From Desulfobulbaceae bacterium (GTDB lineage: Bacteria; Desulfobacterota; Desulfobulbia; Desulfobulbales; Desulfocapsaceae), in the NCBI GenBank assembly GCA_026988015.1, contig JALSMA010000017.1:1-64000 (forward strand): 64,000 nt of DNA, given 5' to 3'. Positions 3,883 to 22,618 of the stretch are shown here, in pieces. The notes beneath the pieces were generated by a model, which was not told where the DNA came from, did no database searches, and saw nothing but the letters and a program-made list of their open reading frames with translations. Numbering within the stretch: position 1 is the stretch's first letter; every line of letters starts with the position of its first letter. The position numbers and the translations under genes were made by a program.

Positions 3883-6444
3883 TTACAGCATAAGATTTGA
3901 CTGAATGGAATACATTTTTGTTCCATATCGTTTCTGACTGATGGCAACATCGAAACCAGCCTCACGTATGGTTTCAAGGTCGTTGGCAAAGCGCTGGGCA
4001 AACTGCCTCGATGAATCCATTTCAAAACGCAATCCAAAATCACGGGACACACGCTTGAGTGCTACAAATAACTCCCGGGATAAAACATTATTCAGACTGC
4101 CGTCATCTTCGAACTTAATCTGGTATCGGGCAACGAACTCCTGAATGTGGTCAACACGGCGGTCGTTGTACATATCTTTCTGGTCTGCCTCCACAGCGTT
4201 CTGCCACGCCTTGAACAGAGTAGAAAGCGCCGTTGCCGTATGGTTGGATTCACGGGCAGTCTCACGGCTGGTCTGATTGATACTCTGAATCTGCTGTTTG
4301 AATGCCGGAGCCAGCTGGGTCATACCCTGTTCAACCCGCTCCTGTGATGAACCAGCCAAAAGCATCAAATACATTAAACTTAGGTATTCATTACAGCGCC
4401 GCTTATCATGATTGCCGAGAGCCTCATGCAGTAGCTTCATCGCCTGTGTGCGCATCCCATCTTTCATCATAGCCAGGACCTCGCTGGTTCTTTTCATGAT
4501 GGCAGAAATAATCAGATCACGTTTTTGCTGAATGGCTGCGATCACTTCGGACTCAATAAAGCAGTCATTGCCCTGATTGCCGATGTCGAAATTAATAACA
4601 AAGCTTCGGGACTGAATTTCAGACAGTCCTCCACACAAGGGCTCGATACCGGTAGTATTGAGCAGACATTTGGTTCGCTCAGTTACCGTTTCACTGTCAG
4701 TACCGCTCTTGCGCTTTTCTTTGGCAATGCCAGTGATGCTGGTCAGCATGAACGTGGTAAGGTCCTCGGTCATTTGTTTCACCTCTATATTGTCGAGAAC
4801 AATAAGAGGGTTTTGGGAACCATCAGTATAATTTGCGGCATCGGTTGCCTTCTTGTGCTGCGGCTCACCGTAGAGCAGTGCCGAGATAATCTTGCTGGCC
4901 GTGGTTTTACCAGATCCGGCTGATCCTTCAAAACGGGTCATAGGTCTGGTACCTGAAAAATCAATCAACAGAAAACAAGTTAGCCACGACAGAATCAGAA
5001 AACGGTCTCCCTGAGAACAGGTCATGTTGTTGACCAATAGATCAACCAGCAACTTATCGGCTTCTTCCGGTGAAGCATCTTTCAGAAATTTGAGCGGCTT
5101 CATTTTGCGGGAACCGTCAAGAATAATCCCATCAGCATTGCCACCGTTCTTGAGAATTTCAATGCCATCCGGAGTGATGCGGGCAATCTCATGGTCTTGA
5201 TTGTTCAGGTTGAAATAGATCGTAAAATTGGAAATGTCGGTGTGCAGCCAGGAGAAATGATCACGGACCTGTCCACGGATCATGGCCAGACTGGGCAAAA
5301 CTTCAAAAAACGTGCGTCCGCCATTGGAGGTTGGAACCATCCCTGTGTGTTTGTAGAGCATTGCGGCATACTGTCTTTTGCGGCCGCGATCGGGTGAGTC
5401 CATCCAATAAATGGAATTGTCGAAATACATAAATGGCTCCCCGGTCTGGGTGTGAAAGAACTGGGCACCATTGGCCGTAAACCAGTCATAAGCGGCTTCG
5501 GCAGCCGCTGTGTAATCAGGAGCACCATTTTCCAGTTTCGTATCGATCAACACCTCATCAACACGGGCTCGGCAGGAGCCGGGAGGAGATCCTCTCAGGC
5601 GTTTGGCTTTCTTTTTTTCCTTCTTGGCAATGTTGCGTCGATTCTGCTGAACAGAACGTACCTGTTCTTTGAGGGTGGCCATTGGAACGGCTTTTCCGAG
5701 GCGTTCCTGAACCAGTTTAAGGAGGCGACTCTGCTCAAGAGGTGAATGGGCCGCAATTTCGGCCAGAACCGGCTCGAGCTGGCGGTTTCTTTCTTCTTCC
5801 GATGCATCCTCCGGCAATCCCTGTATTCCGAATTCAACAGGTGTACAAGCCTTGAAAAGTAATTCCTGAAATTCATCTTTGCCATTTCCCGATGCAAAGA
5901 AGTCATTTACATCGATCTTGGCATTGGCAAGCAGGGTTTCGGCATCACGAATATCCTCGGCAGAGTGTCCTTCGAGCAATTTGGCCAGTTCCCGTGGACC
6001 AACAGCCGCCGTCAAGTTGAACCTGTTCTGCAGTTCCTGACGCGCCTGCTGCTGGGATTCATCCAAAGGAATTGTCACCAGCTTTGTGTCAATTTTATGC
6101 TCGGCCAGAGTGCGTGCGGTTTGCAGTGCTCCTTTGAGGCCAGCCTCTGATATTTCATTGTCCTGGCAGATATAAACGGTCTTGATACCCCGCATCTTCG
6201 GCACAAGGCGTTCCCAGTCAGCGGCTCGAATTCTCACTGTCACAGGAGAGAGTGCCGGAAATCCTTGCTGCATAAGAGCAATGCAATCCGTCACTCCCTC
6301 GGTAATGATAATGTGATCCGGCTTGCCCAGCAGGCAGTCTTCATTGAAGAGAACGGCATTGTTTATGAAGCGGGCAACATAAGGTCTCTGATGTTCATCG
6401 TGAACAGGGAGTTTTTTTATATTTTCCCTGTTCCCAGTTTGCAT
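3883..6444 (-). CDS. Primase TOPRIM domain plus SF3/D5-like helicase (C-terminal part of split primase-helicase)
   Basis: TOPRIM-like HIIITEGVTDCIALMQQG...VYICQDNE; ATPase RFEGSAGSGKTTASKII and LIVLDNIE. N-terminal domain lies in another frame (6395-7207). Confidence 0.8.
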   Translation of the reverse strand: MQTGNRENIKKLPVHDEHQRPYVARFINNAVLFNEDCLLGKPDHIIITEGVTDCIALMQQGFPALSPVTVRIRAADWERLVPKMRGIKTVYICQDNEISEAGLKGALQTARTLAEHKIDTKLVTIPLDESQQQARQELQNRFNLTAAVGPRELAKLLEGHSAEDIRDAETLLANAKIDVNDFFASGNGKDEFQELLFKACTPVEFGIQGLPEDASEEERNRQLEPVLAEIAAHSPLEQSRLLKLVQERLGKAVPMATLKEQVRSVQQNRRNIAKKEKKKAKRLRGSPPGSCRARVDEVLIDTKLENGAPDYTAAAEAAYDWFTANGAQFFHTQTGEPFMYFDNSIYWMDSPDRGRKRQYAAMLYKHTGMVPTSNGGRTFFEVLPSLAMIRGQVRDHFSWLHTDISNFTIYFNLNNQDHEIARITPDGIEILKNGGNADGIILDGSRKMKPLKFLKDASPEEADKLLVDLLVNNMTCSQGDRFLILSWLTCFLLIDFSGTRPMTRFEGSAGSGKTTASKIISALLYGEPQHKKATDAANYTDGSQNPLIVLDNIEVKQMTEDLTTFMLTSITGIAKEKRKSGTDSETVTERTKCLLNTTGIEPLCGGLSEIQSRSFVINFDIGNQGNDCFIESEVIAAIQQKRDLIISAIMKRTSEVLAMMKDGMRTQAMKLLHEALGNHDKRRCNEYLSLMYLMLLAGSSQERVEQGMTQLAPAFKQQIQSINQTSRETARESNHTATALSTLFKAWQNAVEADQKDMYNDRRVDHIQEFVARYQIKFEDDGSLNNVLSRELFVALKRVSRDFGLRFEMDSSRQFAQRFANDLETIREAGFDVAISQKRYGTKMYSIQSNLML

Positions 6445-7207
6445 CAGAAGTCCATGGCGTTTTGCGGCCGATCATGAACACGACACGACCGCGACTCCAG
6501 TATGGAAAGATGATGCGCTTCTCAAAAAACGGGTTCAATCCATCCTGACTGGTGGGCCGAAACGCTCCGGTGGCAGCCAGCTCTCTTTTGCTGAAGCCGT
6601 TATCTCCGGAACGCAGGGACGCAATGACACCGGATTCGTTATCGGCATAACCGATCAGAAGATCATCGATGGTTTCATCGCTGATGGCATATTTTTCTTT
6701 CAGCCATGTAAGAGCTTCCGAATTTTCCTTCAACCGGTGATGATAGTATCGCGCCAGTTCGGTCAGTGCATCTTTGACACGGATTTCAAATAAGCGGTCG
6801 TTTTCAGTCTGTTCCAATCGTTCCTGTGTAAGCCCATACCGTGACAAAGGAGGCATTCCGGCCTTTTCAGCAAGGAAGTCCCGGGCCTGTCGATGACTAT
6901 CAGGCATGGGACCCGATTGCCCGGCCGTAACCACGCCCGATTGAACAAACTCAACCAACTGCAGGACATCACCGCCCACACCACAGCCGAAACAATACCA
7001 TCCCTGTTTGTCGAGCATCACATGCAGTGATCGATGCGACTGGCTTTGATGATGTGGACAGTCGCATTGAAGCCTCTGCCGGGATTCCTGAGTAATTTTT
7101 CCCGCAAGGAGTTCCCTTACCACATCACCAATATCGAGCTCGGTTATCAGACGGTAATATTCTCTGACATTATCTGTTCCCCCCATACTCATTGTGCCCC
7201 CGCGCAA
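6395..7207 (-). CDS. CHC2 zinc-finger primase N-terminal part (split by frame change)
   Basis: CDCPHHQSQSHRSLHVMLDKQGWYCFGCGVGGDVLQLVEF; catalytic-core-like RIIFPYWSRGRVVFMIGRK; ends prematurely after an A7 tract. Confidence 0.8.
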   Translation of the reverse strand: MRGGTMSMGGTDNVREYYRLITELDIGDVVRELLAGKITQESRQRLQCDCPHHQSQSHRSLHVMLDKQGWYCFGCGVGGDVLQLVEFVQSGVVTAGQSGPMPDSHRQARDFLAEKAGMPPLSRYGLTQERLEQTENDRLFEIRVKDALTELARYYHHRLKENSEALTWLKEKYAISDETIDDLLIGYADNESGVIASLRSGDNGFSKRELAATGAFRPTSQDGLNPFFEKRIIFPYWSRGRVVFMIGRKTPWTSDANWEQGKYKKTPCSR

Positions 7208-9411
7208 GCTGTCTGCTGTTCAGGGCTATTTGTATTATTCAAAAAAATGGAGAGGAATGTCTTTCTGTTATCCACCTGACATTTCTTGGCGCAATTACGG
7301 ATTCCCCAGCGGTCACCCAATATAATTGCTGTCTTCCGGGCACGGGTGACACCAGTGTAGAGCAGGTTCCGATGGTGCATAAAAGAATGTGCCTTATGAA
7401 CAACCACCACAGCACACGGAAATTCCGATCCCTGGGTTTTATGAATGGTCAAAGCATAGGCCAGCTGAATGTCCTGAAGATTTGGCGAGCCTTTTTCAAT
7501 TTCCACTGACGCACCTTCAAAGTCGATCAACAACATGCCGTTTGGCAAAACATCGACCACATGACCGATGGCTCCATTCATCACATTGAGGTCGTAATTG
7601 TTGCGGGTTTGAATCACCTTGTCGTGCTTCAGAAAAGGAGGTCTGCGACCGGGAGTGGTATCCGGGACAGTAACATTCCACAGGCGTTTCTGAATCAGTT
7701 TCTGCAGGTCTTCATTCAGCGATTTTGTTCCAAGCGGCCCCTTATGGGTAGGCGTCAGCACCTGTACGTCTTTAATCAGGTCAAAACCGAGTGCACCGAG
7801 TCGTTTGTCAAAAAGATCCAGCAGGAAATTTCGGGCGGCCATCGGGTCTGTAAACTGATCAGCCAGATACCAGTCCCGACAACCGTGTGCGTTGGATTCA
7901 CTGGTTTTTCTTACTTCACCTTTCAGGATGGCTGTGCTGTTTTCTTTCAGTACACCGGCCTGTCTGACCACTTTATCCAAAATGACAGTTGGAATGGCTT
8001 CCGAGTGGATGAGATCCCGAAGAATGTTTCCAGGACCTACTGGTGGAAGCTGGTTGTGATCACCCACAATAACAATGGTTGTTCTGGCAAAATCCACGGC
8101 ATTAAAAAGATGCCAGGCCAGAGGTACATCCACCATAGAGAATTCATCAATAATAAGGATATCGGTATCGATAGGATTATTGCTGTCGCGAGAAAATGAT
8201 TTACCATCATAGCCCAGCAGTCGGTGAATAGTAGTCCCTGTGCGTCCGCTGACTTCTTCGAGCCTCTTGGCCGCCTTACCTGTGGGAGCAGACAACACCA
8301 CTTCCAGATCGCATTCCTCACATACAGCGTTGATGACTGAAACCGTATAGCTTTTGCCCGAACCGGCACCACCGGATATCAGGCTGATGGAATTCTTCAG
8401 GGCTGATTGAACCGCCTCGAACTGCTTTTCATTCAGTGTCTCGGCCTGACGTAATATCAGCTTCTGCAGATTGCGTGTGTTTTTGAAATGAGGATTGGGT
8501 TCATCTGCCTTGGTAAAGATAGCGGCAATATCCTGCTCCATTTTAAGAATATCCGACAACGCCACAAGGAAACGACCGCCGTAAGATTCACACGAAAGCA
8601 GCTTTTCATTGATCAAGTTATCAAGAGCCGTTTCAATCTGAATTCGGCTGTCGAGGTTATCCATAACCAGAAGAAGATTTGCCTGATCGACCAGATCTTC
8701 ATATTCGACCCAGCAGTTTCCCTGATCCAGTGCTTCCTGAATGCAATACTGAATACCAGCACGGATTCGAGGAAGATGATCTTTGGGAGTCCCAAGTTTA
8801 CGAGCAATCTTATCGACCTTTTTAAAGCCGAATCCCCGCAGTTCCCGAATGAGGATATACGGATCTGCTTTGAGTATATCCAAACAGCTGCTGCCGAGTT
8901 TATCGACGAGTGTCGTTACTTGATGGTGGGTCAAACCAAAGGCTGACAGCCATGTGAGGACGGCATTAACACTACGGTTTTTACACCATTCATCCTTTAA
9001 CCGATTGGCAGCAACGAGGGAGATTCTGGCTTTTGCGGCAATGAGTTCCGGGGATTCAATCAGTGTGTCTTCAAATGAATCGCCGAACTCTTCGACAATA
9101 AGGCGGGCTTTGGCTGGGCCAATCCCCTTGATGTCCGGGTGATTGGCCAGGTAATGAATCAATCCTTCCGGGTCCAGGTCAAGATCATGCTCCATGGTTT
9201 CAACCTTGAACTGACGACCGTATTTAGGATGGGTGGTCCACGTCCCAAGCAGGACCACGGGCTGGTTTTCCCGGGCAAAAAGGTTTCCGGCAAACTGAAT
9301 TTCATCTCCAGTAGATGTGAGCAAACGGCCTGCGGAAAACTTCGGCCCGGCATAATAAACTCTCTCTATTCTTCCCCGGAGTTTTGCCGGGGAGTTTGTT
9401 TTTCTTGGCAT
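7189..9411 (-). CDS. RecD2-like DNA helicase
   Basis: GGAGSGKSYTVSVI, DILIIDEFSMVDVPL, AYALTIHKTQGSEFPCAVVVV; likely start MPRKTNSPAKLRGRIERV at 9411. Confidence 0.85.
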   Translation of the reverse strand: MPRKTNSPAKLRGRIERVYYAGPKFSAGRLLTSTGDEIQFAGNLFARENQPVVLLGTWTTHPKYGRQFKVETMEHDLDLDPEGLIHYLANHPDIKGIGPAKARLIVEEFGDSFEDTLIESPELIAAKARISLVAANRLKDEWCKNRSVNAVLTWLSAFGLTHHQVTTLVDKLGSSCLDILKADPYILIRELRGFGFKKVDKIARKLGTPKDHLPRIRAGIQYCIQEALDQGNCWVEYEDLVDQANLLLVMDNLDSRIQIETALDNLINEKLLSCESYGGRFLVALSDILKMEQDIAAIFTKADEPNPHFKNTRNLQKLILRQAETLNEKQFEAVQSALKNSISLISGGAGSGKSYTVSVINAVCEECDLEVVLSAPTGKAAKRLEEVSGRTGTTIHRLLGYDGKSFSRDSNNPIDTDILIIDEFSMVDVPLAWHLFNAVDFARTTIVIVGDHNQLPPVGPGNILRDLIHSEAIPTVILDKVVRQAGVLKENSTAILKGEVRKTSESNAHGCRDWYLADQFTDPMAARNFLLDLFDKRLGALGFDLIKDVQVLTPTHKGPLGTKSLNEDLQKLIQKRLWNVTVPDTTPGRRPPFLKHDKVIQTRNNYDLNVMNGAIGHVVDVLPNGMLLIDFEGASVEIEKGSPNLQDIQLAYALTIHKTQGSEFPCAVVVVHKAHSFMHHRNLLYTGVTRARKTAIILGDRWGIRNCAKKCQVDNRKTFLSIFLNNTNSPEQQTACAGAQ

Positions 9412-9848
9412 TGAGCGAACCTCCGGTGAAAGCGCATTAAAAACTCGTAGGCAAACCGGCAGGCAGCCTGACGGTCTGAACAGAAATACACAGGCACACC
9501 GAAGTCGATGATGATGGAGGCTATGGTTCCTATGATGGCGTTTGGATGGGCGTCGCTTTTGTAGCAAGCTCCGAGAACATCCCGGTAATTTGCCTCAACA
9601 ACGACGCAGGCTGCGTCATAGTGGTGAAGCTTTTCCAGCTCCTTATAAAAACGCTTTCTGCCTCGGATGACAGTGGAAACAAAATCCGCCATGGATTTCC
9701 TTTCCACTGCCACCCGGGTTTCAAACCCCTCTATGGAATAATCTCCCGCCGGGAGGGTCTTACGGACTGATGACACAAATTCCGAATCAAATCCGTAAGG
9801 CTCCTGTTCCCGGGTATCAACGACAACGGTAACCATGCCCATGCTCAA
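9366..9848 (-). CDS. ERCC4-domain nuclease
   Basis: VVVDTREQEPYGF...LPAGDYSIEGFETRVAVERKSMADFVSTVIRGRKRFYKEL. Confidence 0.85.
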   Translation of the reverse strand: MSMGMVTVVVDTREQEPYGFDSEFVSSVRKTLPAGDYSIEGFETRVAVERKSMADFVSTVIRGRKRFYKELEKLHHYDAACVVVEANYRDVLGACYKSDAHPNAIIGTIASIIIDFGVPVYFCSDRQAACRFAYEFLMRFHRRFAQCQEKQTPRQNSGEE

Positions 9849-10327
9849 AACGGAATCATGTCATTAACATCATGATCGGCTGACGGTTCTGATGAAGCGT
9901 CTTCACCAGAAAGCACTATGCGTCGGTTGAAATAGATGTTTTCAAATTCGTTTTTCGTGCGCTTGGTCACCTCAAGCCCAACATCCAGAAGAGACTCCAG
10001 TTTGCCGGGAAGATCAGAAAGCTTTTCCATCTGAAGGCCGCAGGTATAGAGATCCTGCTTCAACCATTTCACATTGTCCTTACTGGCAATGACATTGTTT
10101 CTCCAGAGGAGCCGACCTTTATGTTTCGGCCCCAGAATCTTCAATGCCCATTTGAGCATGGGGTTCCCAGAAGTCTCAGAGCGTGTCAGCTCCACGCGAT
10201 CAACCTTGACCTGATACTTCCCGTCGGGAACAGGCTCAAAATCCTTCTCTTCAACATCCGCAGAGACAAAGTCATCATCGAATTGTGCGAGATCCATAGT
10301 GTCATCATTATTCCAACTCATAGTCAT
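9845..10327 (-). CDS. DUF669 protein (SSB-like)
   Basis: FEPVPDGKYQVKVDRVELTRSETSGNPMLKWALKILGPKHKGRLLWRNN. Confidence 0.8.
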   Translation of the reverse strand: MTMSWNNDDTMDLAQFDDDFVSADVEEKDFEPVPDGKYQVKVDRVELTRSETSGNPMLKWALKILGPKHKGRLLWRNNVIASKDNVKWLKQDLYTCGLQMEKLSDLPGKLESLLDVGLEVTKRTKNEFENIYFNRRIVLSGEDASSEPSADHDVNDMIPF

Positions 10328-11097
10328 TACTCCTTATTTTGAGGTTTAGCCGTTGTGGCAGGCTCCGACTTTGCCCGGGCGGCACTCACCGCTGAACCGG
10401 CAGCCGTTTGATTGAAAGCTTTCAGGAAGGTTGGGAAATCCAATGGGATAATTTCCGGAAGTCTGCCGGTTCGGTCTCCGGCATCGTAATTGGGACTTGG
10501 CTTGGTGCGCATCACCCGCTGGTAAGTGGGTTTTCCGTCCTCACCAGGTTTGATGTCGAGATCACAGAATAGAATCAGATCGACCAGCCCGGTAACCAGC
10601 TTGCGGGCTTTGTCCGGAAGGGTCGGTACAATGCGTGTGTGTTTCCCGGTACGTGTTTCAATGTCACGCTCATGGGAATGAGAAATGAGGATCAGCCCGT
10701 AAGGCAGGAAGGCCAACTTGTTCAGAACACGCTGGAACTCATTGTTGATGAGAGCATATCCTTTTCCGTAACCAAGGTCGGACTCATGCTCGATCTTGAA
10801 CTTTTTACAGACATAATCCGCACACATGCGATAGGCGTTATCGACTGTATCGATGACGATGGTTTTGAAGTCGTGTTTACCTTCCGCGATTTCGGCACAG
10901 GCCTGCAGAAGGTCATCCCAGCAGGTAATGGGCGCTTCGAACACTTCGAGAGCATTCAGGCCGGGTTCTGTGGCGAGAAACAAGGCGTTCTCCGCATGGG
11001 AACACCAAGTGCTCTTTCCAATTTTGCTCGGTCCGTAAACCAGAGCGGTCAGGTCGTGCAGACTTGCTTTCGGTTTGGTTTTGCTTTTTGGCAGCAT
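10327..11097 (-). CDS. Sak4-like RecA-fold ATPase (phage nucleotide-binding protein)
   Basis: VYGPSKIGKSTWCSHAENALFLATEPGLNAL; FKTIVIDTVDNAYRM. Confidence 0.8.
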   Translation of the reverse strand: MLPKSKTKPKASLHDLTALVYGPSKIGKSTWCSHAENALFLATEPGLNALEVFEAPITCWDDLLQACAEIAEGKHDFKTIVIDTVDNAYRMCADYVCKKFKIEHESDLGYGKGYALINNEFQRVLNKLAFLPYGLILISHSHERDIETRTGKHTRIVPTLPDKARKLVTGLVDLILFCDLDIKPGEDGKPTYQRVMRTKPSPNYDAGDRTGRLPEIIPLDFPTFLKAFNQTAAGSAVSAARAKSEPATTAKPQNKE

Positions 11098-11122
11098 GAT
11101 TTATCTCCTTGTATTGGTTGGG

Positions 11123-11986
11123 TTAAAAAACAGGGGCAGCATCTTCACTTGCTCCATCCAGCATCGCTTTGGAGAGCTCCCAAAGCTCACTGCGGAGCTC
11201 GTCGAACTGATCGCGAGAGATGTAGAGCAACTCACGGTGAAACATGCCAGGCTCGAGATATTTTTCTTTGAGTCGAGCCTGAAAGGCTTCGTCTGATTCC
11301 GGCATCTTGCGCTTGGCGCTGCTCTTGCCACTTTTTGACTTGGCAATCAGCGCGGCACGACGGGTTTCGAATTCGGCTTCTGTTTCGCCTTTGCTCTGGC
11401 GCAGCTTGGCCTTTACCAGCACGTTATAGATGATGCCGGAGATGCGGATACCGAGGGTCTGCTCCAGATACCATGCATAGATGATGATCTGAAAATCGGT
11501 CCAAAGCCGTTCCAGATAACCGGCATCGATTTGCGAGGCGGTTTTATGTTCCAGAAGGAAGTATTGACCATTCTGCTTGACAAGACCGTCCACCTTGCCA
11601 GCCAGCACAAAGCTTCTGGAAGCGGCATTAGTATCCGGATTGATGATGGGGCCTTCGAAGGTCTTCTCCAGAGCGACTACATCAAAGTCCTCAACGGGAT
11701 AATGCTCCGTGTATGAACTCATCATGGCGGTGGCGAGATGCCAGTCAGCGAGCTGATGGTCATCCTGAGCACGGTTGGCATAGACCTGATCGATGTGTTC
11801 TAAAACTTTTTCGAGGTCCCGCTGCCCGTGCCAGATTTCCAAACAGTCGTGAATGACTGATCCGAAAGCCAGGTTGTGATCCCGCTCCAGAGGAACAAGC
11901 TCCCTCAGGTAGCGGTATTCACAAGCCTTGCGGCAGTTGCGGAAGAGCCGCCACATGGAATAAGTGGTGGTCATCATTTTGCTCAT
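11123..11986 (-). CDS. PD-(D/E)XK superfamily nuclease (RecB/Cas4-like)
   Basis: FRNCRKACEYRYLRELVPLERDHNLAFGSVIHDCLEIWH; GKVDGLVKQNGQYFLLEHKTA. Confidence 0.8.
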   Translation of the reverse strand: MSKMMTTTYSMWRLFRNCRKACEYRYLRELVPLERDHNLAFGSVIHDCLEIWHGQRDLEKVLEHIDQVYANRAQDDHQLADWHLATAMMSSYTEHYPVEDFDVVALEKTFEGPIINPDTNAASRSFVLAGKVDGLVKQNGQYFLLEHKTASQIDAGYLERLWTDFQIIIYAWYLEQTLGIRISGIIYNVLVKAKLRQSKGETEAEFETRRAALIAKSKSGKSSAKRKMPESDEAFQARLKEKYLEPGMFHRELLYISRDQFDELRSELWELSKAMLDGASEDAAPVF

Positions 11987-12411: not shown

Positions 12412-12996
12412 TCAGAGGTATTCTTCCAAACCCGCCTCCCTGAAGGCGTCCCGCAGTTTGGTCAGTTTTCCGTAGAGAGTGCTGCGCGGAACACCCATCT
12501 CCCTTGCAATTTCAGCCATGTTGCTCGACTGCAGTTTCTCGCAAAGCTCCTGAAGGTCTTCCGGAAGAGCGGCAATCACCCGGTCGACATCAAAGCGGAT
12601 GTCGTTCTGGCGCTGTTCAATGGTTTCCCTGCCTTGGTGTCCCATCTGTCCGTCACTTGAAACCTGCTCAATACGTTCTGTGGAATCATCATTGCCACCC
12701 GGAATGGGGTCGTTGAGAGAAGCTGTGCATTTGCGCCAGTCCCTGCATTGAGCGAAACGGGCCTCGAGAATGTTTGAAATCCGCCGCTCCACAATGCGGG
12801 TCAGGAAGGTGGTCTTTTTGCCTTTGGCGGGATTGAAGTGCTTCATTCTGCTGAGCAGATCGATCATCAATTCCTGTTCGAGATCCTGCCGATCGTTTTC
12901 TGTTAATCCTGCTTTGCCTACCAGCTGTCTTGCTTTGTGCCGAATAAGGTCTGCGGCATATGCATCAATGCCGTCATAGGAATTTTGATAAAACAT
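12412..12996 (-). CDS. Sigma-70-like factor (regions 2 and 4-like)
   Basis: 194 aa; QDLEQELMIDLLSRMKHFNPAKGKKTTFLTRIVERRISNI and NMAEIAREMGVPRSTLYGKLTKLRDAF. Confidence 0.7.
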   Translation of the reverse strand: MFYQNSYDGIDAYAADLIRHKARQLVGKAGLTENDRQDLEQELMIDLLSRMKHFNPAKGKKTTFLTRIVERRISNILEARFAQCRDWRKCTASLNDPIPGGNDDSTERIEQVSSDGQMGHQGRETIEQRQNDIRFDVDRVIAALPEDLQELCEKLQSSNMAEIAREMGVPRSTLYGKLTKLRDAFREAGLEEYL

Positions 12997-13954: not shown

Positions 13955-14374
13955 TCAGCAGAATCCAAAGAAGACCCTTTGTTCTCTCCAATCCAGTGGA
14001 AATGTTTTCACCAGCTTTGACAAAGACAATCCGCTGGGTTCTTCACCATTTATAATGGCTTCGATAATATCAGGAGCCAGAGTGGTCAATTTCAAGGTTC
14101 TGGCTACATAGGAAGAGTCGACATCCAGATCCCTTGCCAATTCACTGATTGATTTTACCTCTCCATTTTCAAGGATATCTGTCCATGCAAAGGCTCGTGC
14201 CAATGACTGAACTATGGCTGTCTGGACGGTTTCCGGCATACCTTCATTTTCACCATCCAGCGTGTCCGGTGTGAATACCATTTTCCGCCCACGCATCCTT
14301 CGAATGAACATGGGGATATGGATATGCAGATTCCCGCTATCAGTAAGTTTGATCGTTGGTTTGATCTTCTTCAT
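13955..14374 (-). CDS. Recombinase-associated HTH/ParB-like hypothetical (139 aa)
   Basis: ISELARDLDVDSSYVARTLKLTTLAPDIIEAIINGEEPSGLSLSKL; abuts the recombinase. Confidence 0.6.
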   Translation of the reverse strand: MKKIKPTIKLTDSGNLHIHIPMFIRRMRGRKMVFTPDTLDGENEGMPETVQTAIVQSLARAFAWTDILENGEVKSISELARDLDVDSSYVARTLKLTTLAPDIIEAIINGEEPSGLSLSKLVKTFPLDWREQRVFFGFC

Positions 14375-15966
14375 CAGTTGTTACTCCTTTCCTTGACCTC
14401 ACAGGCCAGCCCGGCCAGCTCGGTGACGAGGTTTGTCAGTCCGTTCGTTTTCAGCTCCATATCGATTCCCGTTTCTCGGATTTCGATCGTTTCAACCAAG
14501 AGCTGGATCAGTCGGTTGCGCTCAAGCGGGAAGAGATCCTCCCAGAAGGTTTCCACACTCTGGAATGCCTCGGAAACATCGCCTTCCGATATCTGTTCTG
14601 TATCAATTACCTTCAATCGGGCAGATACGTTGGTGAGCTGCTTGGTCAAATCAACGGCCTGCTGGTTGACCAAGGGCAGCCTGTTGTTTCGGTCGGGATC
14701 GTCATTGTCAGGCGACATCAGCTTCAGCGCTTCCTGCCTGACATTCTGAAGGGATTGCTCAAGTTCTTTTTTCTGGACTTGCAGACGCTGCCGCTCTTCT
14801 TTCTCGATCTCTCTGGCTGCAAAATAGGTCTTGGCAACTAAAGTGGGTGTTCGGAATACAGCTCCCAGCTGGTCAAGCACTACCGATTCAATGTCCCCGG
14901 CTGGAACTCTCTTGATAGGACATTGACTGACGGCACGTTTGGTATCCTTTTCACATATATAATAGGAGTAACGCCGGTCGCCTTTATTGGTATAGGTAAT
15001 GCCCATAGCACTATCACAGTGCCCGCACCGGATAACCCCACTCAAAGGAGAGATCATCTTTACCCGGGCCTTGCTCATCTTGGTTCGATTGTTTTCCGAG
15101 AGCAGACTCTGAACCTTGTCCCATGTATTCCGATCAATCAACGCTTCATGCTCGCCGGGATAATTATTCCCTTTGTAGGCAATCTCCCCGATGTAAAGTC
15201 TGTTGTTGAGAAGCCGGTAAACCTGAGCCGTGTTCCATTCGGTGCCGACTCGTTCTTTTCCTTTTTTGGTGGTCCATGATTTGGTTTTGTATCCTTGCTC
15301 GTTGAGTTCCTGTGCGACTTTCTTGGCAGAGCCCACCTGTGTGTATCGCCTGAATATGAGCTTCACCAGTGGAGCCTCACTCTGATTGACAAGCAGCTTT
15401 TTGTTTACGCGGTCAACGTCATAACCAAGAACCGCAGGACCTCCGCAATATTTGCCACGGCGTTTTGCGGCAGCAACCTTGTCCCGGATACGCTCACCGA
15501 TAACTTCCCGTTCATACTGGGCAAAGGTGATCAGGATTCCCAGAAACATTCGACCCGTTGGATCGGTGGTGCTGAAATGCTGGGTGACGGAAACGAAGCT
15601 CACTTCCTTTTCGTTGAAGAGCTCTATCATCTTCATGAAATCCAGCAGGGAGCGCGACAGTCGGTCGATTTTGTAGACAACGATGACATCAATCTTACCG
15701 GCATCGATATCGGCCAGCAGCCTTTGGAGAGCCGGACGTTCCATGTTACCTCCGGAAAACCCGCCATCGTCATATCGATATGGAATGGCTTTCCAGCCCT
15801 GAAGTTTCTGACTCTCGATGTAGGCCTCACCAGCTTCTCTTTGAGCATCGAGTGAATTGAATTCCTGCTCCAAGCCTTCTTCGTGACTCTTTCTGGTGTA
15901 GATTGCACACCGGAGTGTTTTGCGCTGACCATTCTGGGTGTTGGTATTGTTAAGCATTTTGACCAC
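14374..15966 (-). CDS. Large serine recombinase
   Basis: AIYTRKSHEEG, SLDAQREAGEAYI, DDGGFSGGNMERPALQRLLADIDAGKIDVIVVYKIDRLSR; recombinase/zinc ribbon C-terminus. Confidence 0.92.
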   Translation of the reverse strand: MVKMLNNTNTQNGQRKTLRCAIYTRKSHEEGLEQEFNSLDAQREAGEAYIESQKLQGWKAIPYRYDDGGFSGGNMERPALQRLLADIDAGKIDVIVVYKIDRLSRSLLDFMKMIELFNEKEVSFVSVTQHFSTTDPTGRMFLGILITFAQYEREVIGERIRDKVAAAKRRGKYCGGPAVLGYDVDRVNKKLLVNQSEAPLVKLIFRRYTQVGSAKKVAQELNEQGYKTKSWTTKKGKERVGTEWNTAQVYRLLNNRLYIGEIAYKGNNYPGEHEALIDRNTWDKVQSLLSENNRTKMSKARVKMISPLSGVIRCGHCDSAMGITYTNKGDRRYSYYICEKDTKRAVSQCPIKRVPAGDIESVVLDQLGAVFRTPTLVAKTYFAAREIEKEERQRLQVQKKELEQSLQNVRQEALKLMSPDNDDPDRNNRLPLVNQQAVDLTKQLTNVSARLKVIDTEQISEGDVSEAFQSVETFWEDLFPLERNRLIQLLVETIEIRETGIDMELKTNGLTNLVTELAGLACEVKERSNN

Positions 15967-16456
15967 CTCCCTTTTTTCTGTGACTGCTTTTCAGACCGAA
16001 GAAAATCTTTCCGTTCCATCTGGTTCCGGTTATCTCACGGGCAACAGCGCTTAAAGATCTGAAGATGCGGCCGTCATACTCATAGCCACTATCCCGGGCT
16101 ATCACTTCATAGCGCTGGTCGTTCCAGATTCGGACAAAGCGAGTGCCGGGAAGGATGGTTTCCTGTGATTTTCGCTCCTCAGGGATTTTACGGATCACGG
16201 TTGCGACTGGATCTGTTTCGGCAACCTGTTTGAGGTGGGCTTTGGCTTGCTCGGACAGACCACCGTAAAAGAGTTCCTGTATTCGGTGCGCCAGCCGTTT
16301 TATCAGAAACTGTTTTTTGTACTTGGGTGGTTCGGTTCCATAAAGATCCAGCCATTTTTCTCTGAGCTGATCAAGGCTCAACGTCTGGAGCGTGGCCAGT
16401 TGCCTCAACACCGAGGTCTTGGCTCGCTCGTCTTTCTTTTTTTTCAGGTCATTCAT
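15950..16456 (-). CDS. DUF2924 protein
   Basis: LREKWLDLYGTEPPKYKKQFLIKRLAHRIQELFYGGLS...PGTRFVRIWNDQRYEV...YDGRIFRSLSAVAREITGTRWNGKIFFGL. Confidence 0.85.
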   Translation of the reverse strand: MNDLKKKKDERAKTSVLRQLATLQTLSLDQLREKWLDLYGTEPPKYKKQFLIKRLAHRIQELFYGGLSEQAKAHLKQVAETDPVATVIRKIPEERKSQETILPGTRFVRIWNDQRYEVIARDSGYEYDGRIFRSLSAVAREITGTRWNGKIFFGLKSSHRKKGGGQNA

Positions 16457-16486: not shown

Positions 16487-16741
16487 TTAGTTGTCATGAA
16501 TGACGCTCTTTCTCGGAGAAGAATCAAGTCCTTCTCCGAAGGTTCTGGAAGAATCTGCAATATTCTTTAACCCATTGGCATTATTTGCTTTACGGTATCG
16601 ATTCCTGAGGGCTGCAATAGCCAGAATGGCCGCAATTGCATCCAGCTGTTGTTCCGGTGTAATACATTCAGCGTCTGGTAATTGTGCTTCACTCAGCGTC
16701 TCTGAATAAGGGTTTTCGGGTGCTAATTCCACATCAAGCAT
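16487..16741 (-). CDS. Hypothetical small element protein
   Basis: Likely start MLDVELAPENPYSE; upstream of DUF2924. Confidence 0.45.
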   Translation of the reverse strand: MLDVELAPENPYSETLSEAQLPDAECITPEQQLDAIAAILAIAALRNRYRKANNANGLKNIADSSRTFGEGLDSSPRKSVIHDN

Positions 16742-16959
16742 AAGGGCCTCCGTTGGGCCGGTGCCGATGGGAGAAGCTGCGGGTGCCAAAAACAAAAGGC
16801 GGCTGGGATGCGCGTTTTTCAGCACCCACAACCGCCTCTGCCTGGCATCCGGCCAATTGTCTGGTTTCTAACTCTTGTCCGAATTGAATCTTCGGAGTTT
16901 CCGGAGGTTACATACCGGAAGAGTTTTTAACCTGTCGGAAATATTATTTATAAGATTTC

Positions 16960-16988
16960 TTGACCTGATAGATATAAGGTCGTATATT
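16960..16988 (+). promoter_or_regulatory. lexA promoter with overlapping inverted-repeat operator
   Basis: TTGACC-N17-TATATT; GACCT-N10-AGGTC at 16962-16981 lies between and over the -35 and -10. Confidence 0.7.
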
Positions 16989-17046: not shown

Positions 17047-17670
17047 ATGGGCAGAAACAAAGAAGATGACATAACACCGTTGCAGCAGGAAACGCTTGAT
17101 GAGATATGCCGGTATGTTTCAGCCAAAGGGTATCCGCCAACGGTTAAGGAATTGAGCGAAACATTTGGAATCAGTCACGCCAGTGTGCATGACCGGATCA
17201 ACCAGCTGGTTCGCAAAGGTTATTTGAAAAGAGAGGATGGTAAGGCTCGCGGATTGACCGTGACCAAACCTCCCCAGACAAACGCTGTCGCTCTTGTGGC
17301 GGTCCCGATTGTCGGCACAGTCGCAGCCGGTCAGCCGATCTTCGCTCAGGAGAACATTATGGGCGAGGTATTGGTGGAAGCCTCTGTTGTTGGATCAGGC
17401 AAGTGTTTTGCTCTGTATGCGCAGGGTAACAGCATGATAAACGCCGATATAAATGACGGCGACCTGATCATTGTAAGGCGGCAGCCAATTGCTGAAGATG
17501 GTGATATCGTTATTGCTCTGCTGGACGATGAAGCCACAGTCAAGAGGCTGAAAATCAACAATGAGCTCATTGAGCTGGTCCCGGAGAATCCGAGACTGAA
17601 ACCCATCAGGGTGAAACCTGAAGATGAATTGAGGATTCTCGGCAAAGTGGTGGGCCGTAAACGAATTTGA
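17047..17670 (+). CDS. lexA: LexA repressor (element-borne)
   Basis: N-terminal wHTH, cleavage-site-like GTVAAGQPIFAQENI, Ser in QGNSMINADI, Lys in DDEATVKRLK. Confidence 0.92.
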   Translation: MGRNKEDDITPLQQETLDEICRYVSAKGYPPTVKELSETFGISHASVHDRINQLVRKGYLKREDGKARGLTVTKPPQTNAVALVAVPIVGTVAAGQPIFAQENIMGEVLVEASVVGSGKCFALYAQGNSMINADINDGDLIIVRRQPIAEDGDIVIALLDDEATVKRLKINNELIELVPENPRLKPIRVKPEDELRILGKVVGRKRI

Positions 17671-17717
17671 GAGAACATAACATGCAAGAATAATAGAAAG
17701 GAAAACAGGAGACAATA

Positions 17718-18884
17718 ATGGCAACTTTAAACCTTCGCCGCTTTTCAAAGCCGGAAATGCTCCGGAAGATCGACCGGAGCCATCTGATCACATTTTTTGA
17801 GCCCTATACCGAATATCTATCCGGGCGAGGAATAGAGTTGCCAGCGGCAGCCAATGAAGACGGACTGGATTATTCAGCTCTAAGTACCGTTTTGATTAAT
17901 CCAAATGCCAGTACTCCTGAGGGGATGGCAGAGGCACTTTATTATATCAATGAGGTATCTACCCCAGAGGGCTTTGACCTGATACAGGATGCCATTGCCG
18001 ATACCGCGATTGATGTCAGTATCTCTGAAGATGCCGCCTATGGTGATTTGGCCCTGCAGGTGTGGCTTCAGGATAGTGACCTTATTGAGCGTATTCATGC
18101 TGAACAGTTCCTCTTCCGCCCACGTTCCTTTGAGTATTTCAAATGCACCCGAGAAACCATCCCGGATTTCGAAGAACCGAGCGAAGAAACTATTGCCGCC
18201 CTCGAAGCGGATCTGGATGAATGGTTTGCTAAAAAAAGACGTGGTCGAGCCTCCAAGGTATTAAAATATGTGAAAGATGACTTTGTCTGGTTTCTCGTCC
18301 GTCATGGTGAACCTTTCACCCGGGAATCCATCATCAAGGATGATAAATCCTCGAGCCTGTTTTATCGACCGGAAAAATATGATGTGATCGTTTACAACCC
18401 GGAGAACGGTGAGATCCGGATGAATGCACGATCCAAAGGTGAAAAGGAACTGTACCGCACCAAGTTCGGGCTCCACCTTTTTGGTGATGCCGAGTTTTTC
18501 GATGGAAAGAGCAAATTTACGTTGGAGCCACTCCGGGAATCGGGATCAGCCTCCATTCTTTGTGATGATATTGAAGGGATCGATTGGGTACGCCTCAAGG
18601 AACTTCAAATTTATTGGGGAGGAACACATAAAGAAATTGAGATCCGGAAAGCCGAGGATATCTTTGCTTCCTTGGAAGAGCGGGATCGCAGCATCCCCAA
18701 TGGGGGGCGATTGAACAAGGCAAGTTTTCAAATCAAGTTTTCCGACTCCAAAACGCCACGAACCGTAACTCTAAGCTCAGGCAACCGGGCTCAGTTCAAA
18801 CGGGATGATGATGCTGAAGTGCTGGAAGAGTGGTTGATCCGTCGTGGATTTGTCATAGCAGATTCGGAGGATAATGGTGAGTGA
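17718..18884 (+). CDS. Hypothetical protein (388 aa), lexA operon
   Basis: Long ORF; stop overlaps next start. Confidence 0.75.
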   Translation: MATLNLRRFSKPEMLRKIDRSHLITFFEPYTEYLSGRGIELPAAANEDGLDYSALSTVLINPNASTPEGMAEALYYINEVSTPEGFDLIQDAIADTAIDVSISEDAAYGDLALQVWLQDSDLIERIHAEQFLFRPRSFEYFKCTRETIPDFEEPSEETIAALEADLDEWFAKKRRGRASKVLKYVKDDFVWFLVRHGEPFTRESIIKDDKSSSLFYRPEKYDVIVYNPENGEIRMNARSKGEKELYRTKFGLHLFGDAEFFDGKSKFTLEPLRESGSASILCDDIEGIDWVRLKELQIYWGGTHKEIEIRKAEDIFASLEERDRSIPNGGRLNKASFQIKFSDSKTPRTVTLSSGNRAQFKRDDDAEVLEEWLIRRGFVIADSEDNGE

Positions 18885-19953
18885 AGCCCTGCTGTGGCAA
18901 TTTTTGGAAGAGCATCCGAAGCAGAATGCGCCGTGGTGTGAATGGCAGGATGCGTTTGGCGGTTGGGATTCCTTCAGTGGATTTGAAACGAAGTTCCTGC
19001 AGCTGACCAATCAGCGTGCGTCTGCGGTCAATTGTCGAACCGACTGTGGACAAGGTTGCCCCAGAAAAGTTGTCGAACATGCCGCCGATGATATTGCTGC
19101 GGTTTGCCCTGAGCAGGAAGAGAAGCCTTACAGCCTGAACAAGAGGGATGTGCTGGTCTATACATTGACCCGGTCATCGTTCCACAAAAGCATCTGCGCC
19201 GGGCTTGGAATCACACGGAATGAAAATTCGCTGGACGGCATTCCCGGTGTTTTCCGTCTGGGGGATTACACACCGACCGCCGGTTTCAATTTTCCGGTTT
19301 ACCTGACCTTCAAGAGTGACCCGGACGCACTTCTTGAAAGCGTCAGGAATATCAGTCTGCTTGGGCAGGACCCTTATGCGCTGATCATTCCAACCCGCAA
19401 GCAGCTGACACCCCGGACCGAAGACCTGCTTAACCGGAGCGGATCAATATGTATCGTGCTGAGCGAGGAATTTTCCATTCAAGCCAATGGCAGCCTGAAA
19501 GCTCTCAGACCAGCGACCGATGTATTTACAACCTTTCAGGCAGATGTGCCTGAGCCGGATTCCGGTGGCATGGTCCATTTTGATACGCCTGCCGGTATTA
19601 ACTGGAGCGGCATCAGCATCAAGTTTATTGACGGCCATACCGTTTCCATCCGCACGACCAAATCACACGGCCAGTACAATTACACCCAAATGGGAATGGC
19701 TAATACCAGAAACGGGAACCCGACTGTTCACTGGACCCTCTTGCGGGATTTTGCGGAAAACCAAGGCATTATTGATAACACAAGCCCCAAGGACACACCG
19801 TTTCATCATATGTCCAAGCGTAAACAGAATTTATCCAAAAAGCTAAGGCAATTTTTCCGTCTAACAGACGACCCGATTGAATACCTGAAGGAAGAAGGAT
19901 GCTACCGATGCCTTTTCACAATCAAGCCTGAGGGGGATGACGAATATGCATAA
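18874..19953 (+). CDS. Hypothetical protein (359 aa), Cys-containing N-terminus and shared C-terminal module
   Basis: C-terminus SIRTTKSHGQYNYTQMGMANTRNGNPTVHWTLLRDFAENQG...YRCLFTIKPEGDDEYA homologous to the next ORF. Confidence 0.75.
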   Translation: MVSEALLWQFLEEHPKQNAPWCEWQDAFGGWDSFSGFETKFLQLTNQRASAVNCRTDCGQGCPRKVVEHAADDIAAVCPEQEEKPYSLNKRDVLVYTLTRSSFHKSICAGLGITRNENSLDGIPGVFRLGDYTPTAGFNFPVYLTFKSDPDALLESVRNISLLGQDPYALIIPTRKQLTPRTEDLLNRSGSICIVLSEEFSIQANGSLKALRPATDVFTTFQADVPEPDSGGMVHFDTPAGINWSGISIKFIDGHTVSIRTTKSHGQYNYTQMGMANTRNGNPTVHWTLLRDFAENQGIIDNTSPKDTPFHHMSKRKQNLSKKLRQFFRLTDDPIEYLKEEGCYRCLFTIKPEGDDEYA

Positions 19954-21895
19954 CGAAGGCGTCATTCACTATGATTTTGAAAAGTCCATGCCATCTTCTC
20001 TTAAAAAAGCAGCGGACTGGGCATGGACTTGTTATGAACGCCTTTGCCTATCTTTTTGCACGACGAATTGTATCAAGAAGGTAAAGTGTAAACTGCCGAC
20101 CCACTTAGAGTCGCACAGCCATGCTGGATTTGAGGAAGCTCAAAAAGCATTTCATGAGGCACTGGCTTATTTGCCTGTAATCGAGATGCCCAATGACGAA
20201 TGTCCGGCGTGCACCGTTGCAAAAGCGCTTCACACATTTCCACTAATTGCTGCCAGATCTGAAGTAACTCCCGTATCAGAAATAAAAATGAACGGTGTTG
20301 ACTGTTATCCTGAAGTTGTTCCCATGGGGGCCAATACAAAAAGATCATTTCCTTGCTGTATTGTAAATACATGGGTAGGAGACTCTGAACACGTCATAGA
20401 AAATCGATGCAGGGAAATGGTGCTACTCAATTTGGACATTGATGAGCTTCCTTCAATGCCTCCATGGGAATATGAAAAAATCGAGCATTCCTTTTTGCAA
20501 GGGCAAACAGTTGTAAAACGATTATGGGCTATCAAACAAGGGGAGCCGGAAGAAGAGATTAAGAAGAGCGAGCTATTTGAATACAATCTTAACAACGCAA
20601 TTGCGGCAACGATCTGCTTGAGAGATCTTCTTCGAGCAAATGTATTTTATCCCGGCGCAATACCTGAAGATGATTTTAGTTCCTTGGAACGGTCCCTTCT
20701 CGAGTGGATTAATCATTCAGTTGAAAACGAGCCTTTGCTAAAAAAAATATACAGTCAGTTATTTAAGGATGAATCATCTGAAGCCACAAATCCTTTGGAT
20801 ACTCTTTCGGCATTCTATTCTGTGATGTTGCTCCATCATCCTGACATGCCTGCAATCAATGCTGACTCCGGTAAAACAAAGGAATCAATTTCTGAGGTCA
20901 TGAACAAATGCCTTGGTGACTCGTTGCAGCCGATCAAAGAGGCACGCGACTATATCGTTAACGCAAAGCTGAGAAGCTGTATATATCCAACACCAGAAGG
21001 AAATGCCCAGTATCGTTCTACTTCAAGGTACTTCATGATGCTCCGAGAATATTGGATGCTTTGCCAAAAAGCTGTTACTGATCGGACCAATCATCATGTG
21101 GCTTGGCACCCATACCCCCTGTCAACCATTGTGATTAATTTGAAGCACCGGATTGATGCTTGTATCAAGGGGATGTCTGAAACGGGATTTGACATTTCAC
21201 CGAATATTCAAAGTGACATGGATGATCTGGTGGAAGCCTTATTGCATTGGGATGTCGATGAATTCAGCATTGGTGGGGAGGATTTGTTGAACAAAATCCA
21301 ATCTGTCGCTTTATGGATTGAAGAAACGGATATTCAAGTTGGTCGATCACTCTCTGCAATGATCCCTGAAGAGCAGACTTATATCGAATATGCACACCAA
21401 CTCTTCGAGAAATACAACAAGGATGCCAAGGCTGCTTTTCAAAAGATGTTGAGCAACGCCGACAAGCAAGCCGCACAGTACAAGAAGGACACTCAACCCG
21501 AGAGCCCGAAAGAAAAAAACGGAGAGACCTTCCCGCTGCCCCAAGGAGCAAAATGGAGCGAGCTTACACTTGAATTCTCGGATGGCCATGTAGTCACTGT
21601 TAAGTTTCAAGAAAAGCGCAAGCGCTTTACATACGCACAAATGGGGATGGTTTGTAGCAAAAGTGGAAACCCAAATAAGCAATGGGATCTGCTGAAAGCT
21701 TTTGCCGAATCATACGGCCAGATCGATTGGCAAAACCGGTTTGCTTCAAACAAGCTCAAAAAACAGAAACAGGAACTTTCCAAACGCCTCCGGGAATTTT
21801 TTCGGATCGAAGAAGACCCAATTGAGTGGGGCAAAGGTGAAAAATCCTACCGCTGCCTTTTCACGATAAAGCCTGAAGGAGCTGATGATTATTGA
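19937..21895 (+). CDS. Hypothetical protein (652 aa), Cys-rich N-terminus and shared C-terminal module
   Basis: Overlaps preceding ORF; N-terminal CYERLCLSFCTTNCIKKVKC; C-terminal FTYAQMGMVCSKSGNPNKQWDLLKAFAESYG...YRCLFTIKPEGADDY. Confidence 0.75.
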   Translation: MTNMHNEGVIHYDFEKSMPSSLKKAADWAWTCYERLCLSFCTTNCIKKVKCKLPTHLESHSHAGFEEAQKAFHEALAYLPVIEMPNDECPACTVAKALHTFPLIAARSEVTPVSEIKMNGVDCYPEVVPMGANTKRSFPCCIVNTWVGDSEHVIENRCREMVLLNLDIDELPSMPPWEYEKIEHSFLQGQTVVKRLWAIKQGEPEEEIKKSELFEYNLNNAIAATICLRDLLRANVFYPGAIPEDDFSSLERSLLEWINHSVENEPLLKKIYSQLFKDESSEATNPLDTLSAFYSVMLLHHPDMPAINADSGKTKESISEVMNKCLGDSLQPIKEARDYIVNAKLRSCIYPTPEGNAQYRSTSRYFMMLREYWMLCQKAVTDRTNHHVAWHPYPLSTIVINLKHRIDACIKGMSETGFDISPNIQSDMDDLVEALLHWDVDEFSIGGEDLLNKIQSVALWIEETDIQVGRSLSAMIPEEQTYIEYAHQLFEKYNKDAKAAFQKMLSNADKQAAQYKKDTQPESPKEKNGETFPLPQGAKWSELTLEFSDGHVVTVKFQEKRKRFTYAQMGMVCSKSGNPNKQWDLLKAFAESYGQIDWQNRFASNKLKKQKQELSKRLREFFRIEEDPIEWGKGEKSYRCLFTIKPEGADDY

Positions 21896-22258: not shown

Positions 22259-22618
22259 TGGTGGAGGCGGCGGGAGTCGAACCCGCGTCCAAGAATGCTC
22301 CCCTTTCGTATCTACATGCTTAGTTCCGGGCTTTAGGTTTCGCGCCTGAGGCCCCGCCGGAACCAGAGTACTCCGACGCTATTCTGCTAAATCTCGTTCT
22401 TTTACCGGCAGACGCAGTGAAAGAACCAGCCCGTTGAGTCGGCGCTCCGATCCGGTCTTACGGGCAAAGACCGGGGGAACGGCACAGCAGTCTAAGCTGC
22501 CAGTGCGTAGTTATAATCGTCGGCGATTATAATTAAAGTTCCATCAGTTTAACGAGCAGATAGAAGCTCGGCATGCAACGTAAAGCTTACACATCCCTGT
22601 CGAATCCGTTTCGCCCCC
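22259..22618 (-). ncRNA. ssrA: tmRNA
   Basis: 5' GGGGGCGAAACGGATTCGACAGGG, 3' GGTTCGACTCCCGCCGCCTCCACCA; tag reading frame GCC GAC GAT TAT AAC TAC GCA CTG GCA GCT TAG = ADDYNYALAA. Confidence 0.95.

What the first reader, a model, noticed from the sequence alone, without database searches (positions are those of the whole stretch)
17047..21895. LexA-headed, translationally coupled operon of three unrecognised genes, two sharing a C-terminal module: candidate undescribed system
Sequence shows lexA followed by ORFs of 388, 359 and 652 aa on the same strand with short gaps or overlaps (18874 vs 18884; 19937 vs 19953). The last ~125 aa of the 359- and 652-aa proteins are clearly homologous (W..l.i.F.DGH.V......Y.QMGM....GNP...W.LL..FAE..G......K.K..LSK.LR.FFR...DPIE......YRCLFTIKPEG.D.Y), while their N-terminal parts differ and both contain Cys clusters (NCRTDCGQGCP; CYERLCLSFCTTNC...KC). 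I do not recognise any of the three families. Inference: a damage-responsive accessory module where the shared C-terminal domain docks variable Cys-rich N-terminal domains.
Basis: partly seen in the sequence, partly recalled or inferred. Interest (0 to 1): 0.75.

Follow-up and report, generated by a model that had tools for sequence, protein, structure and literature searches.

The report
LexA-controlled prophage cassette, likely anti-phage
A virus lying dormant in a bacterial chromosome carries, behind a DNA-damage-sensitive switch, a widespread but unnamed pair of genes in exactly the spot where sister viruses carry known anti-virus defence genes, so the pair is a good candidate for an undescribed defence system that viruses use against each other.

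Summary
In detail: lexA (17047-17670), g1 (388 aa), g2 (359 aa) and g3 (652 aa) are co-directional, g1/g2 and g2/g3 overlap, and g2 and g3 share a C-terminal module. It is not a host SOS operon but the repressor end of a temperate contractile-tailed phage integrated at the 3' end of ssrA. g1 and g2 are unrecognised families that travel as a pair (91 of 95 g1 loci with room), in hosts of many phyla; g3 is a rare extra. One palindromic operator, GACCTGAT-N4-ATCAGGTC, sits between -35 and -10 of the lexA promoter, once per prophage examined. Sister phages carry, behind the same operator and a LexA helix-turn-helix stub, QatB-QatC or a type III-D CRISPR effector in the g1-g2 place. Other g1-g2 pairs follow capH/capP-like regulators. 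Best reading: an exchangeable defence slot under a damage-sensitive repressor, with g1-g2 a probable new superinfection-exclusion or defence pair. Nothing was tested at the bench; g1's mechanism is unknown; a phage-regulatory role is the main rival.

The parts
16960..16988 (+). lexA promoter (-35 TTGACC, -10 TATATT, spacer 17) with the palindromic operator GACCTGATagatATAAGGTC at 16962-16981 between them
   Evidence: Conserved upstream of lexA in 26 loci; weight-matrix score 27.7; one strong site per phage
17047..17670 (+). phage lexA: HTH plus S24 peptidase domain; Ala-Gly cleavage site, Ser (GNSM) and Lys (ATVKR) motifs present
   Evidence: TIGR00498 179 bits, Peptidase_S24 2e-33; motifs
17718..18884 (+). 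g1, 388 aa, unrecognised family; invariant RPEKxD motif in 51 homologues
   Evidence: No Pfam/PDB/PADLOC/PHROG match; alignment A4
18874..19953 (+). g2, 359 aa: constant N-terminal ~200-aa domain (C-terminal part exchanged between phages)
   Evidence: g2 next to g1 in 91 of 95 loci; AlphaFold2 pLDDT 91.9
19567..19950 (+). exchangeable C-terminal module of g2 (type A), winged-helix-like order of strands and helices
   Evidence: shared with g3; other kinds elsewhere; secondary structure; DNA binding is inference (negative)
19937..21895 (+). g3, 652 aa, unrecognised N-terminal part plus the same C-terminal module; rare accessory
   Evidence: Homologue only in L033; dN/dS 0.095; slot holds another gene in L003/L004 and is empty in L005
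21524..21892 (+). C-terminal module of g3, homologous to 19567-19950
16487..16831 (-). orf114, small conserved gene divergent from lexA
   Evidence: Synteny
15950..16456 (-). DUF2924 protein, companion of the integrase
   Evidence: PF11149 1.5e-49
14374..15966 (-). large serine recombinase (phage integrase)
   Evidence: Resolvase/Recombinase/Zn ribbon; 47% to phage AcaML1, 43% to phage WO
13955..14374 (-). ParB-like small protein of the integrase operon
   Evidence: TIGR00180 weak match, synteny
12412..12996 (-). sigma-factor-like protein at the head of the phage early genes
   Evidence: Sigma70_r2 2.6e-7, synteny
3883..11986 (-). phage replication/recombination genes: primase, RecD2, ERCC4 nuclease, DUF669 SSB, Sak4, exonuclease
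22259..22618 (-). host ssrA (tmRNA); its 3' terminal 31-40 nt (22259-22298) is the attachment site at the phage boundary
   Evidence: ARAGORN; phage similarity stops there in L004 and L005, L004 has a different tmRNA

Best explanation
The segment is the repressor end of a temperate contractile-tailed phage integrated at ssrA. Its repressor-controlled slot holds a cassette, lexA-g1-g2, to which this phage has added g3. Shown by sequence: the phage LexA has one strong operator, overlapping the lexA promoter, so its visible target is its own operon. Shown by comparison: the slot is exchangeable, and sister phages carry QatB-QatC or a type III-D CRISPR effector there. Inferred: LexA keeps g1-g2 expression low in the lysogen, and expression rises when LexA is cleaved (DNA damage, ssDNA from an invading phage) or is absent on entry into a new cell. 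g1 and g2 then act together as an anti-phage or superinfection-exclusion pair: g2 recognises a DNA or nucleoprotein target through its exchangeable C-terminal head, and g1, the invariant partner, is the likely effector. g3 borrows the same head to bring a further unknown domain to the same target.
For: Slot content: behind the same operator and a 77-86 aa LexA HTH stub, 31 of 36 IMG/VR operator loci carry QatB-QatC, the other five end shortly behind the operator (PADLOC QatC 1.9e-53); one of 11 genome sites carries Csx1, Cas10, Cas5 and Cas7 of type III-D. XRE + ImmA/IrrE pairs in front of g1 in nine loci, capH 9e-8 and capP 8e-24 for L131. Single operator per prophage. g1 and g2 inseparable and under purifying selection. 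g2 heads swapped repeatedly: 13 changes on the g1 tree. Prophage defence hotspots between repressor and integrase are known (PMC9122126); CapH/CapP control immune operons in response to damage (PMC13373217).
Against: g1 and g2 match no known defence protein. Guilt by position is not a function test. g1-g2 is unusually constant and widespread for a cargo gene, and it was not found outside integrase-bearing elements, though all loci were collected through g1. The winged-helix reading of the module fails profile comparison. Many g1-g2 loci have no recognised regulator in front (34 'other').
Confidence: 0.5

Rival explanations
1. g1-g2 is part of the phage's own lysogeny switch. LexA autorepresses the operon; on damage, derepressed g1-g2 acts as activator or antirepressor and turns on the early operon, the swapped g2 heads matching each phage's own promoters.
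For: Operator only at lexA-g1-g2, none at the early genes, so another factor must relay the signal; head swapping fits promoter specificity; g1-g2 accompanies either LexA or XRE+ImmA, both prophage-type repressors.
Against: Sister phages with the same integrase and sigma-exo-Sak4 genes lack g1-g2 and have QatB-QatC instead, so g1-g2 is dispensable for the phage cycle; some Myxococcota elements have g1-g2 without these replication genes.
Confidence: 0.28
2. g1-g2 is a recombination or excision accessory (for example a directionality factor) for the serine integrase, induced by SOS through LexA.
For: Integrase or DUF2924 in 43 of 51 loci with long upstream sequence; serine integrases need a directionality factor (general knowledge).
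Against: The same integrase works in elements without g1-g2: phages with Qat (L174) and a BREX-carrying element (L173). Integrase presence is partly an ascertainment effect.
Confidence: 0.08
3. One reading: a chromosomal damage-response accessory module in which a shared C-terminal dock carries variable Cys-rich N-terminal domains.
For: Within the window alone, g2 and g3 share only the C-terminal module.
Against: Family-wide the N-terminus is the constant part and the C-terminus the variable part. The operon lies in a prophage at ssrA. The genome has another lexA, and no strong operator of this type was found at that locus.
Confidence: 0.04

Closest known systems
[quoted passage not shown] 2022, PMC9122126)
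   Same: A small exchangeable slot at a conserved place of a temperate phage, filled with different anti-phage systems
   Different: Here the slot is led by its own LexA (or LexA HTH stub) and one conserved operator, and most known contents are Qat or g1-g2
QatABCD (QatB-QatC core; PMC13279940)
   Same: QatB-QatC occupies the identical slot behind the identical operator in sister phages
   Different: g1 and g2 have no sequence similarity to QatA-D; here QatB-QatC directly follow the LexA stub, with no QatA seen between them
CapH/CapP, CapW/BrxR and CapK/CapS controllers of immune operons (PMC13373217)
   Same: Damage-responsive repressor encoded directly in front of a defence cassette; g1-g2 of other phages has capH/capP-like genes in front
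   Different: In the window the controller is a LexA-family protein with its own operator
Lambda cI-rexA-rexB
   Same: Repressor gene followed by two co-transcribed genes that may exclude other phages; RexA binds DNA (PMC11077077)
   Different: No sequence similarity was tested or seen; g1-g2 is far more widespread
Wolbachia phage WO and Acidithiobacillus phage AcaML1
   Same: Closest named phages by integrase (43% and 47% identity)
   Different: No g1 or g2 in any of 50,697 phage records

Membership tests
LexA repressor (SOS type) | LexA HTH and S24 domains | tested here: met
   TIGR00498 179 bits, cut-off 111
LexA repressor (SOS type) | Ala-Gly cleavage site, catalytic Ser and Lys | tested here: met
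   Window LexA; 36 of 49 LexA genes in front of g1 have both motifs, most of the rest are cut or deviate
LexA repressor (SOS type) | RecA-dependent cleavage and SOS induction of the operon | not testable with these tools
   Needs a bench test
Temperate tailed phage | Integrase, attachment site, replication and virion genes in one element | tested here: met
   Integrase and replication genes in the window; ssrA boundary; terminase, portal, sheath in sister element; the window's own contig ends before its virion genes
QatABCD | QatB/QatC homologues | tested here: not met
   PADLOC scan of g1, g2, g3: no match; QatB-QatC only in sister phages
Any PADLOC defence system, for g1-g2 | Profile match to a known defence protein | tested here: not met
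Anti-phage defence (function) | Protection against phage | not testable with these tools
   Only position and regulation were compared
CapH/CapP controllers, for the genes in front of g1 in planctomycete and viral loci | XRE repressor plus ImmA/IrrE metallopeptidase next to an immune operon | tested here: met
   capH 9e-8, capP 8e-24 for L131; Pfam HTH_19 and Peptidase_M78; immune role of the operon itself unproven
Winged-helix (OmpR-type) DNA-binding domain, for the shared module | Sequence-profile homology | tested here: not met
   Pfam none, hhalign probability 0.3
Winged-helix (OmpR-type) DNA-binding domain, for the shared module | Order of secondary-structure elements | tested here: inconclusive
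   Strands-helix-strand-long helix-hairpin in a confident model; no structural match obtained
PD-(D/E)XK-like fold, for g2 N-terminal domain | Fold match and catalytic residues | tested here: inconclusive
   Only weak Foldseek hits to RPB5 and phage restriction-endonuclease models (probability 0.51-0.63), no PDB match at E <= 0.001; no conserved acidic/Lys set seen

The most novel reading that the evidence does not exclude
g1-g2 is an undescribed two-gene anti-phage system in which an invariant effector (g1) is aimed by a partner (g2) whose C-terminal recognition head is exchanged between phages. It is carried in a phage defence slot whose promoter is controlled by a phage LexA, which would make LexA proteins, full-length or HTH-only, a further class of controller of adjacent immune operons beside CapH/CapP, CapW/BrxR and CapK/CapS.
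Probability: 0.42. Interest if true: 0.82.

Novelty: new variant of a known kind. Interest (0 to 1): 0.62.

Why it matters
If true, it adds a widespread and so far unnamed defence pair with a built-in way of changing what it recognises, and shows that temperate phages use a LexA-type switch with one operator to run interchangeable immune cassettes (g1-g2, Qat, type III-D CRISPR). The operator is distinctive enough (reversed-pattern control 0 in 398 genomes) to serve as a probe for further unknown cassettes in the same slot. It also makes a question directly testable: what does a prophage gain by coupling its weapons to the DNA-damage signal?

Tried and rejected
Plasmids searched with g1 and g3, and phages searched with g1 and g2: no match. 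PDB sequence searches with g1 and g2 profiles: nothing convincing. Foldseek of g2 against PDB: no match at E <= 0.001; in the viral library one hit at 2e-4 to an HSP70-like protein, rejected (TM 0.11, rmsd 21). Profile comparison of the shared module with OmpR-type domains and with the other head types: not significant; an apparent A-B match (97%) vanished after one misfiled sequence was removed. Idea that ssrA att copies flank an invertible block: only one copy of the 31-nt site in the window. Idea that g1-g2 is an obligatory phage core gene: dropped when phages with QatBC or CRISPR in its place were found. First operator guess (5-bp arms, GACCT-N10-AGGTC): no better than chance in the window alone; it became convincing only by comparison between phages.

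Full report
WHAT IS THERE. The four genes are as described: lexA 17047-17670; g1 17718-18884; g2 18874-19953; g3 19937-21895, with overlaps of 11 and 17 nt and a 47-nt gap between lexA and g1. lexA is recognised beyond doubt and has the cleavage site and Ser/Lys motifs of an autocleaving repressor. g1, g2 and g3 match nothing significantly in Pfam, PHROGs, NCBIfam or PADLOC. g2 and g3 share their C-terminal module (37% over 208 columns, E = 2e-37). dN/dS values of 0.05-0.14 show real genes under purifying selection.

WHERE IT LIES. The operon is the end of a prophage. tmRNA (ssrA) lies at 22259-22618 on the minus strand. To its left are a large serine recombinase, DUF2924, a ParB-like gene, a sigma-like protein, exonuclease, Sak4-like recombinase, DUF669 SSB, ERCC4 nuclease, RecD2 and primase. 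Four IMG/VR contigs match at about 85-90% DNA identity. In two of them the similarity runs to the last 31-40 nt of ssrA and stops; in L004 a tmRNA with a different tag follows, so ssrA is the integration site in different hosts. In Desulfocarbo indianensis the same element continues into terminase, portal, head morphogenesis, tail sheath and tape-measure genes, so these are contractile-tailed temperate phages. The window's contig starts inside the phage, so its own virion genes were not seen. The closest named integrases are those of phages AcaML1 (47%) and Wolbachia WO (43%), but no g1 or g2 was found in 50,697 phage records.

THE GENE FAMILY. A g1 alignment found 10 of 348 genomes of the phylum. 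A scan of 85,488 species genomes gave 80 loci and IMG/VR gave 27, in Desulfobacterota, Planctomycetota, Pseudomonadota (mostly Magnetococcales), Myxococcota, Kiritimatiellota, Nitrospirota and others; many are metagenome bins, so single host assignments are uncertain. Of 95 loci with at least 700 nt after g1, 91 have g2 next to it; the four exceptions include broken g1 genes. Of 51 loci with long upstream sequence, 43 have integrase or DUF2924. Some Myxococcota loci have integrase and DUF2924 but none of the recognisable replication genes.

ARCHITECTURE. Over the family the N-terminal ~200 aa of g2 is constant; the C-terminus is the window-type module, a longer type B, an HTH-like type C (best Pfam hint Crp-like HTH, E = 0.0026, below the curated cut-off), or one of at least three rarer kinds. 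On a g1 tree these types need 13 changes, and the label changes of type B number at least four on well-supported branches. AlphaFold2 gives a confident g2 model (pLDDT 91.9). Its module reads strands-helix-strand-long helix-hairpin, compatible with a winged helix, but profile comparison with OmpR-type domains fails; DNA binding by the module is therefore inference. g3 occurs only in the window and L033. In L003 and L004 a 193-205 aa gene stands in its place, and in L005 nothing does. In L005 the end of g2 and the sequence behind it match the end of g3, as if the two module copies had recombined and deleted g3.

THE SWITCH. Upstream regions of LexA-bearing loci share TTGACCTGAt-N4-ATCAGGTc-n-TATAaT: a palindrome between -35 and -10 of the lexA promoter (window 16960-16988). 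A weight matrix finds one strong site per locus, always there, with none at int, sigma or other early genes, and none at the host's other lexA. The D. alkanivorans prophage with flanks (about 68 kb) and two 39-kb contigs also contain one strong site each. LexA proteins of Magnetococcales phages have other palindromes by eye. So the visible target of this LexA is its own operon.

THE SLOT. Phages of the same family without g1 were sought through DUF2924. L174 and L175 carry, behind the same operator, a LexA reduced to its HTH and then QatB and QatC (QatC by PADLOC, QatB by position and by my reading of its sequence). A pattern scan of IMG/VR gave 36 further operator loci: 31 have QatB or QatB-QatC behind the operator and five end shortly behind it. 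In 398 genomes the pattern (reversed control 0) gave 11 sites: five lexA-g1, four Qat, one LexA-HTH followed by Csx1, Cas10, Cas5 and Cas7 of type III-D, and one without a recognised gene. In other g1-g2 loci an XRE + ImmA/IrrE pair stands in place of LexA (nine loci); for L131 the pair matches capH and capP, known damage-responsive controllers of immune operons (PMC13373217). QatB-QatC is the minimal complex required for Qat defence (PMC13279940). A prophage defence hotspot between repressor and integrase is known in Vibrionaceae (PMC9122126).

INTERPRETATION. Shown: a repressor-led slot in a temperate phage family, whose content is exchangeable and includes two known kinds of defence genes and the g1-g2 pair. 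Inferred: g1-g2 is itself an anti-phage or superinfection-exclusion pair, kept low by LexA and released on damage or on entry into a new host; g2 recognises the target by its exchangeable head, and g1 is the effector. The main rival is that g1-g2 relays the LexA signal to the phage's own lytic genes; the single operator would fit that. Against it stands the existence of sister phages that do without g1-g2.

LIMITS. Loci were found through g1, so co-occurrence with the phage core is biased. g1 has no usable structure model. Membership in any named defence system was tested and not met; the claim is 'sits and is wired like a defence cassette', not 'is a known system'. The literature library is incomplete, so prior naming of g1-g2 elsewhere cannot be excluded.

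Noticed in passing
window 1847-3780 (-): The same prophage also carries an AbiL-like pair (RloB-like 201 aa, AAA ATPase 442 aa; PADLOC AbiLii 2e-25, AbiLi 3e-79), a known abortive-infection system, at its other visible end.
   Followed up: partly
L173 (G216:C1:694000-713900): An integrative element at ssrA with nearly the same integrase, DUF2924 and ParB-like genes carries a BREX-like cluster (BrxF, BrxC, PglX-like methylase) and no LexA, g1 or Qat in the stretch read: the integrase module also moves defence islands.
   Followed up: partly
L234 (G456:C47:5000-14000): A type III-D CRISPR effector operon (Csx1, Cas10, Cas5, Cas7) directly behind the phage LexA operator and a LexA HTH stub; adaptation genes and a CRISPR array were not looked for.
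   Followed up: partly
L022-L024, L036, L041 versus window, L030, L033: The block ParB-Int-DUF2924-lexA-g1-g2 has opposite orientation relative to ssrA and the sigma-exo-Sak4 genes in two groups of otherwise similar phages: a large inversion of unknown cause.
   Followed up: no
L037 and L035, in front of g1: lexA is replaced by a MarR-type regulator, an ArsP-type permease and a 63-aa protein: a metal/arsenic-resistance-like cargo seems to have displaced the repressor.
   Followed up: no
L003 6151-7258: Two extra genes (134 aa with weak DnaJ similarity, 237 aa unknown) inserted between orf114 and lexA in one phage, displacing the usual operator-promoter.
   Followed up: no
window 18877-19566 versus L030: dS of the g2 N-terminal part (0.23) is far lower than that of g1 (0.98) for the same pair of phages, suggesting recent exchange of that stretch.
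   Followed up: no
L004 10250-10831 and L003 10220-10837: A 193-205 aa protein of no recognised family stands in the g3 place next to the attachment site: another candidate cargo gene.
   Followed up: no
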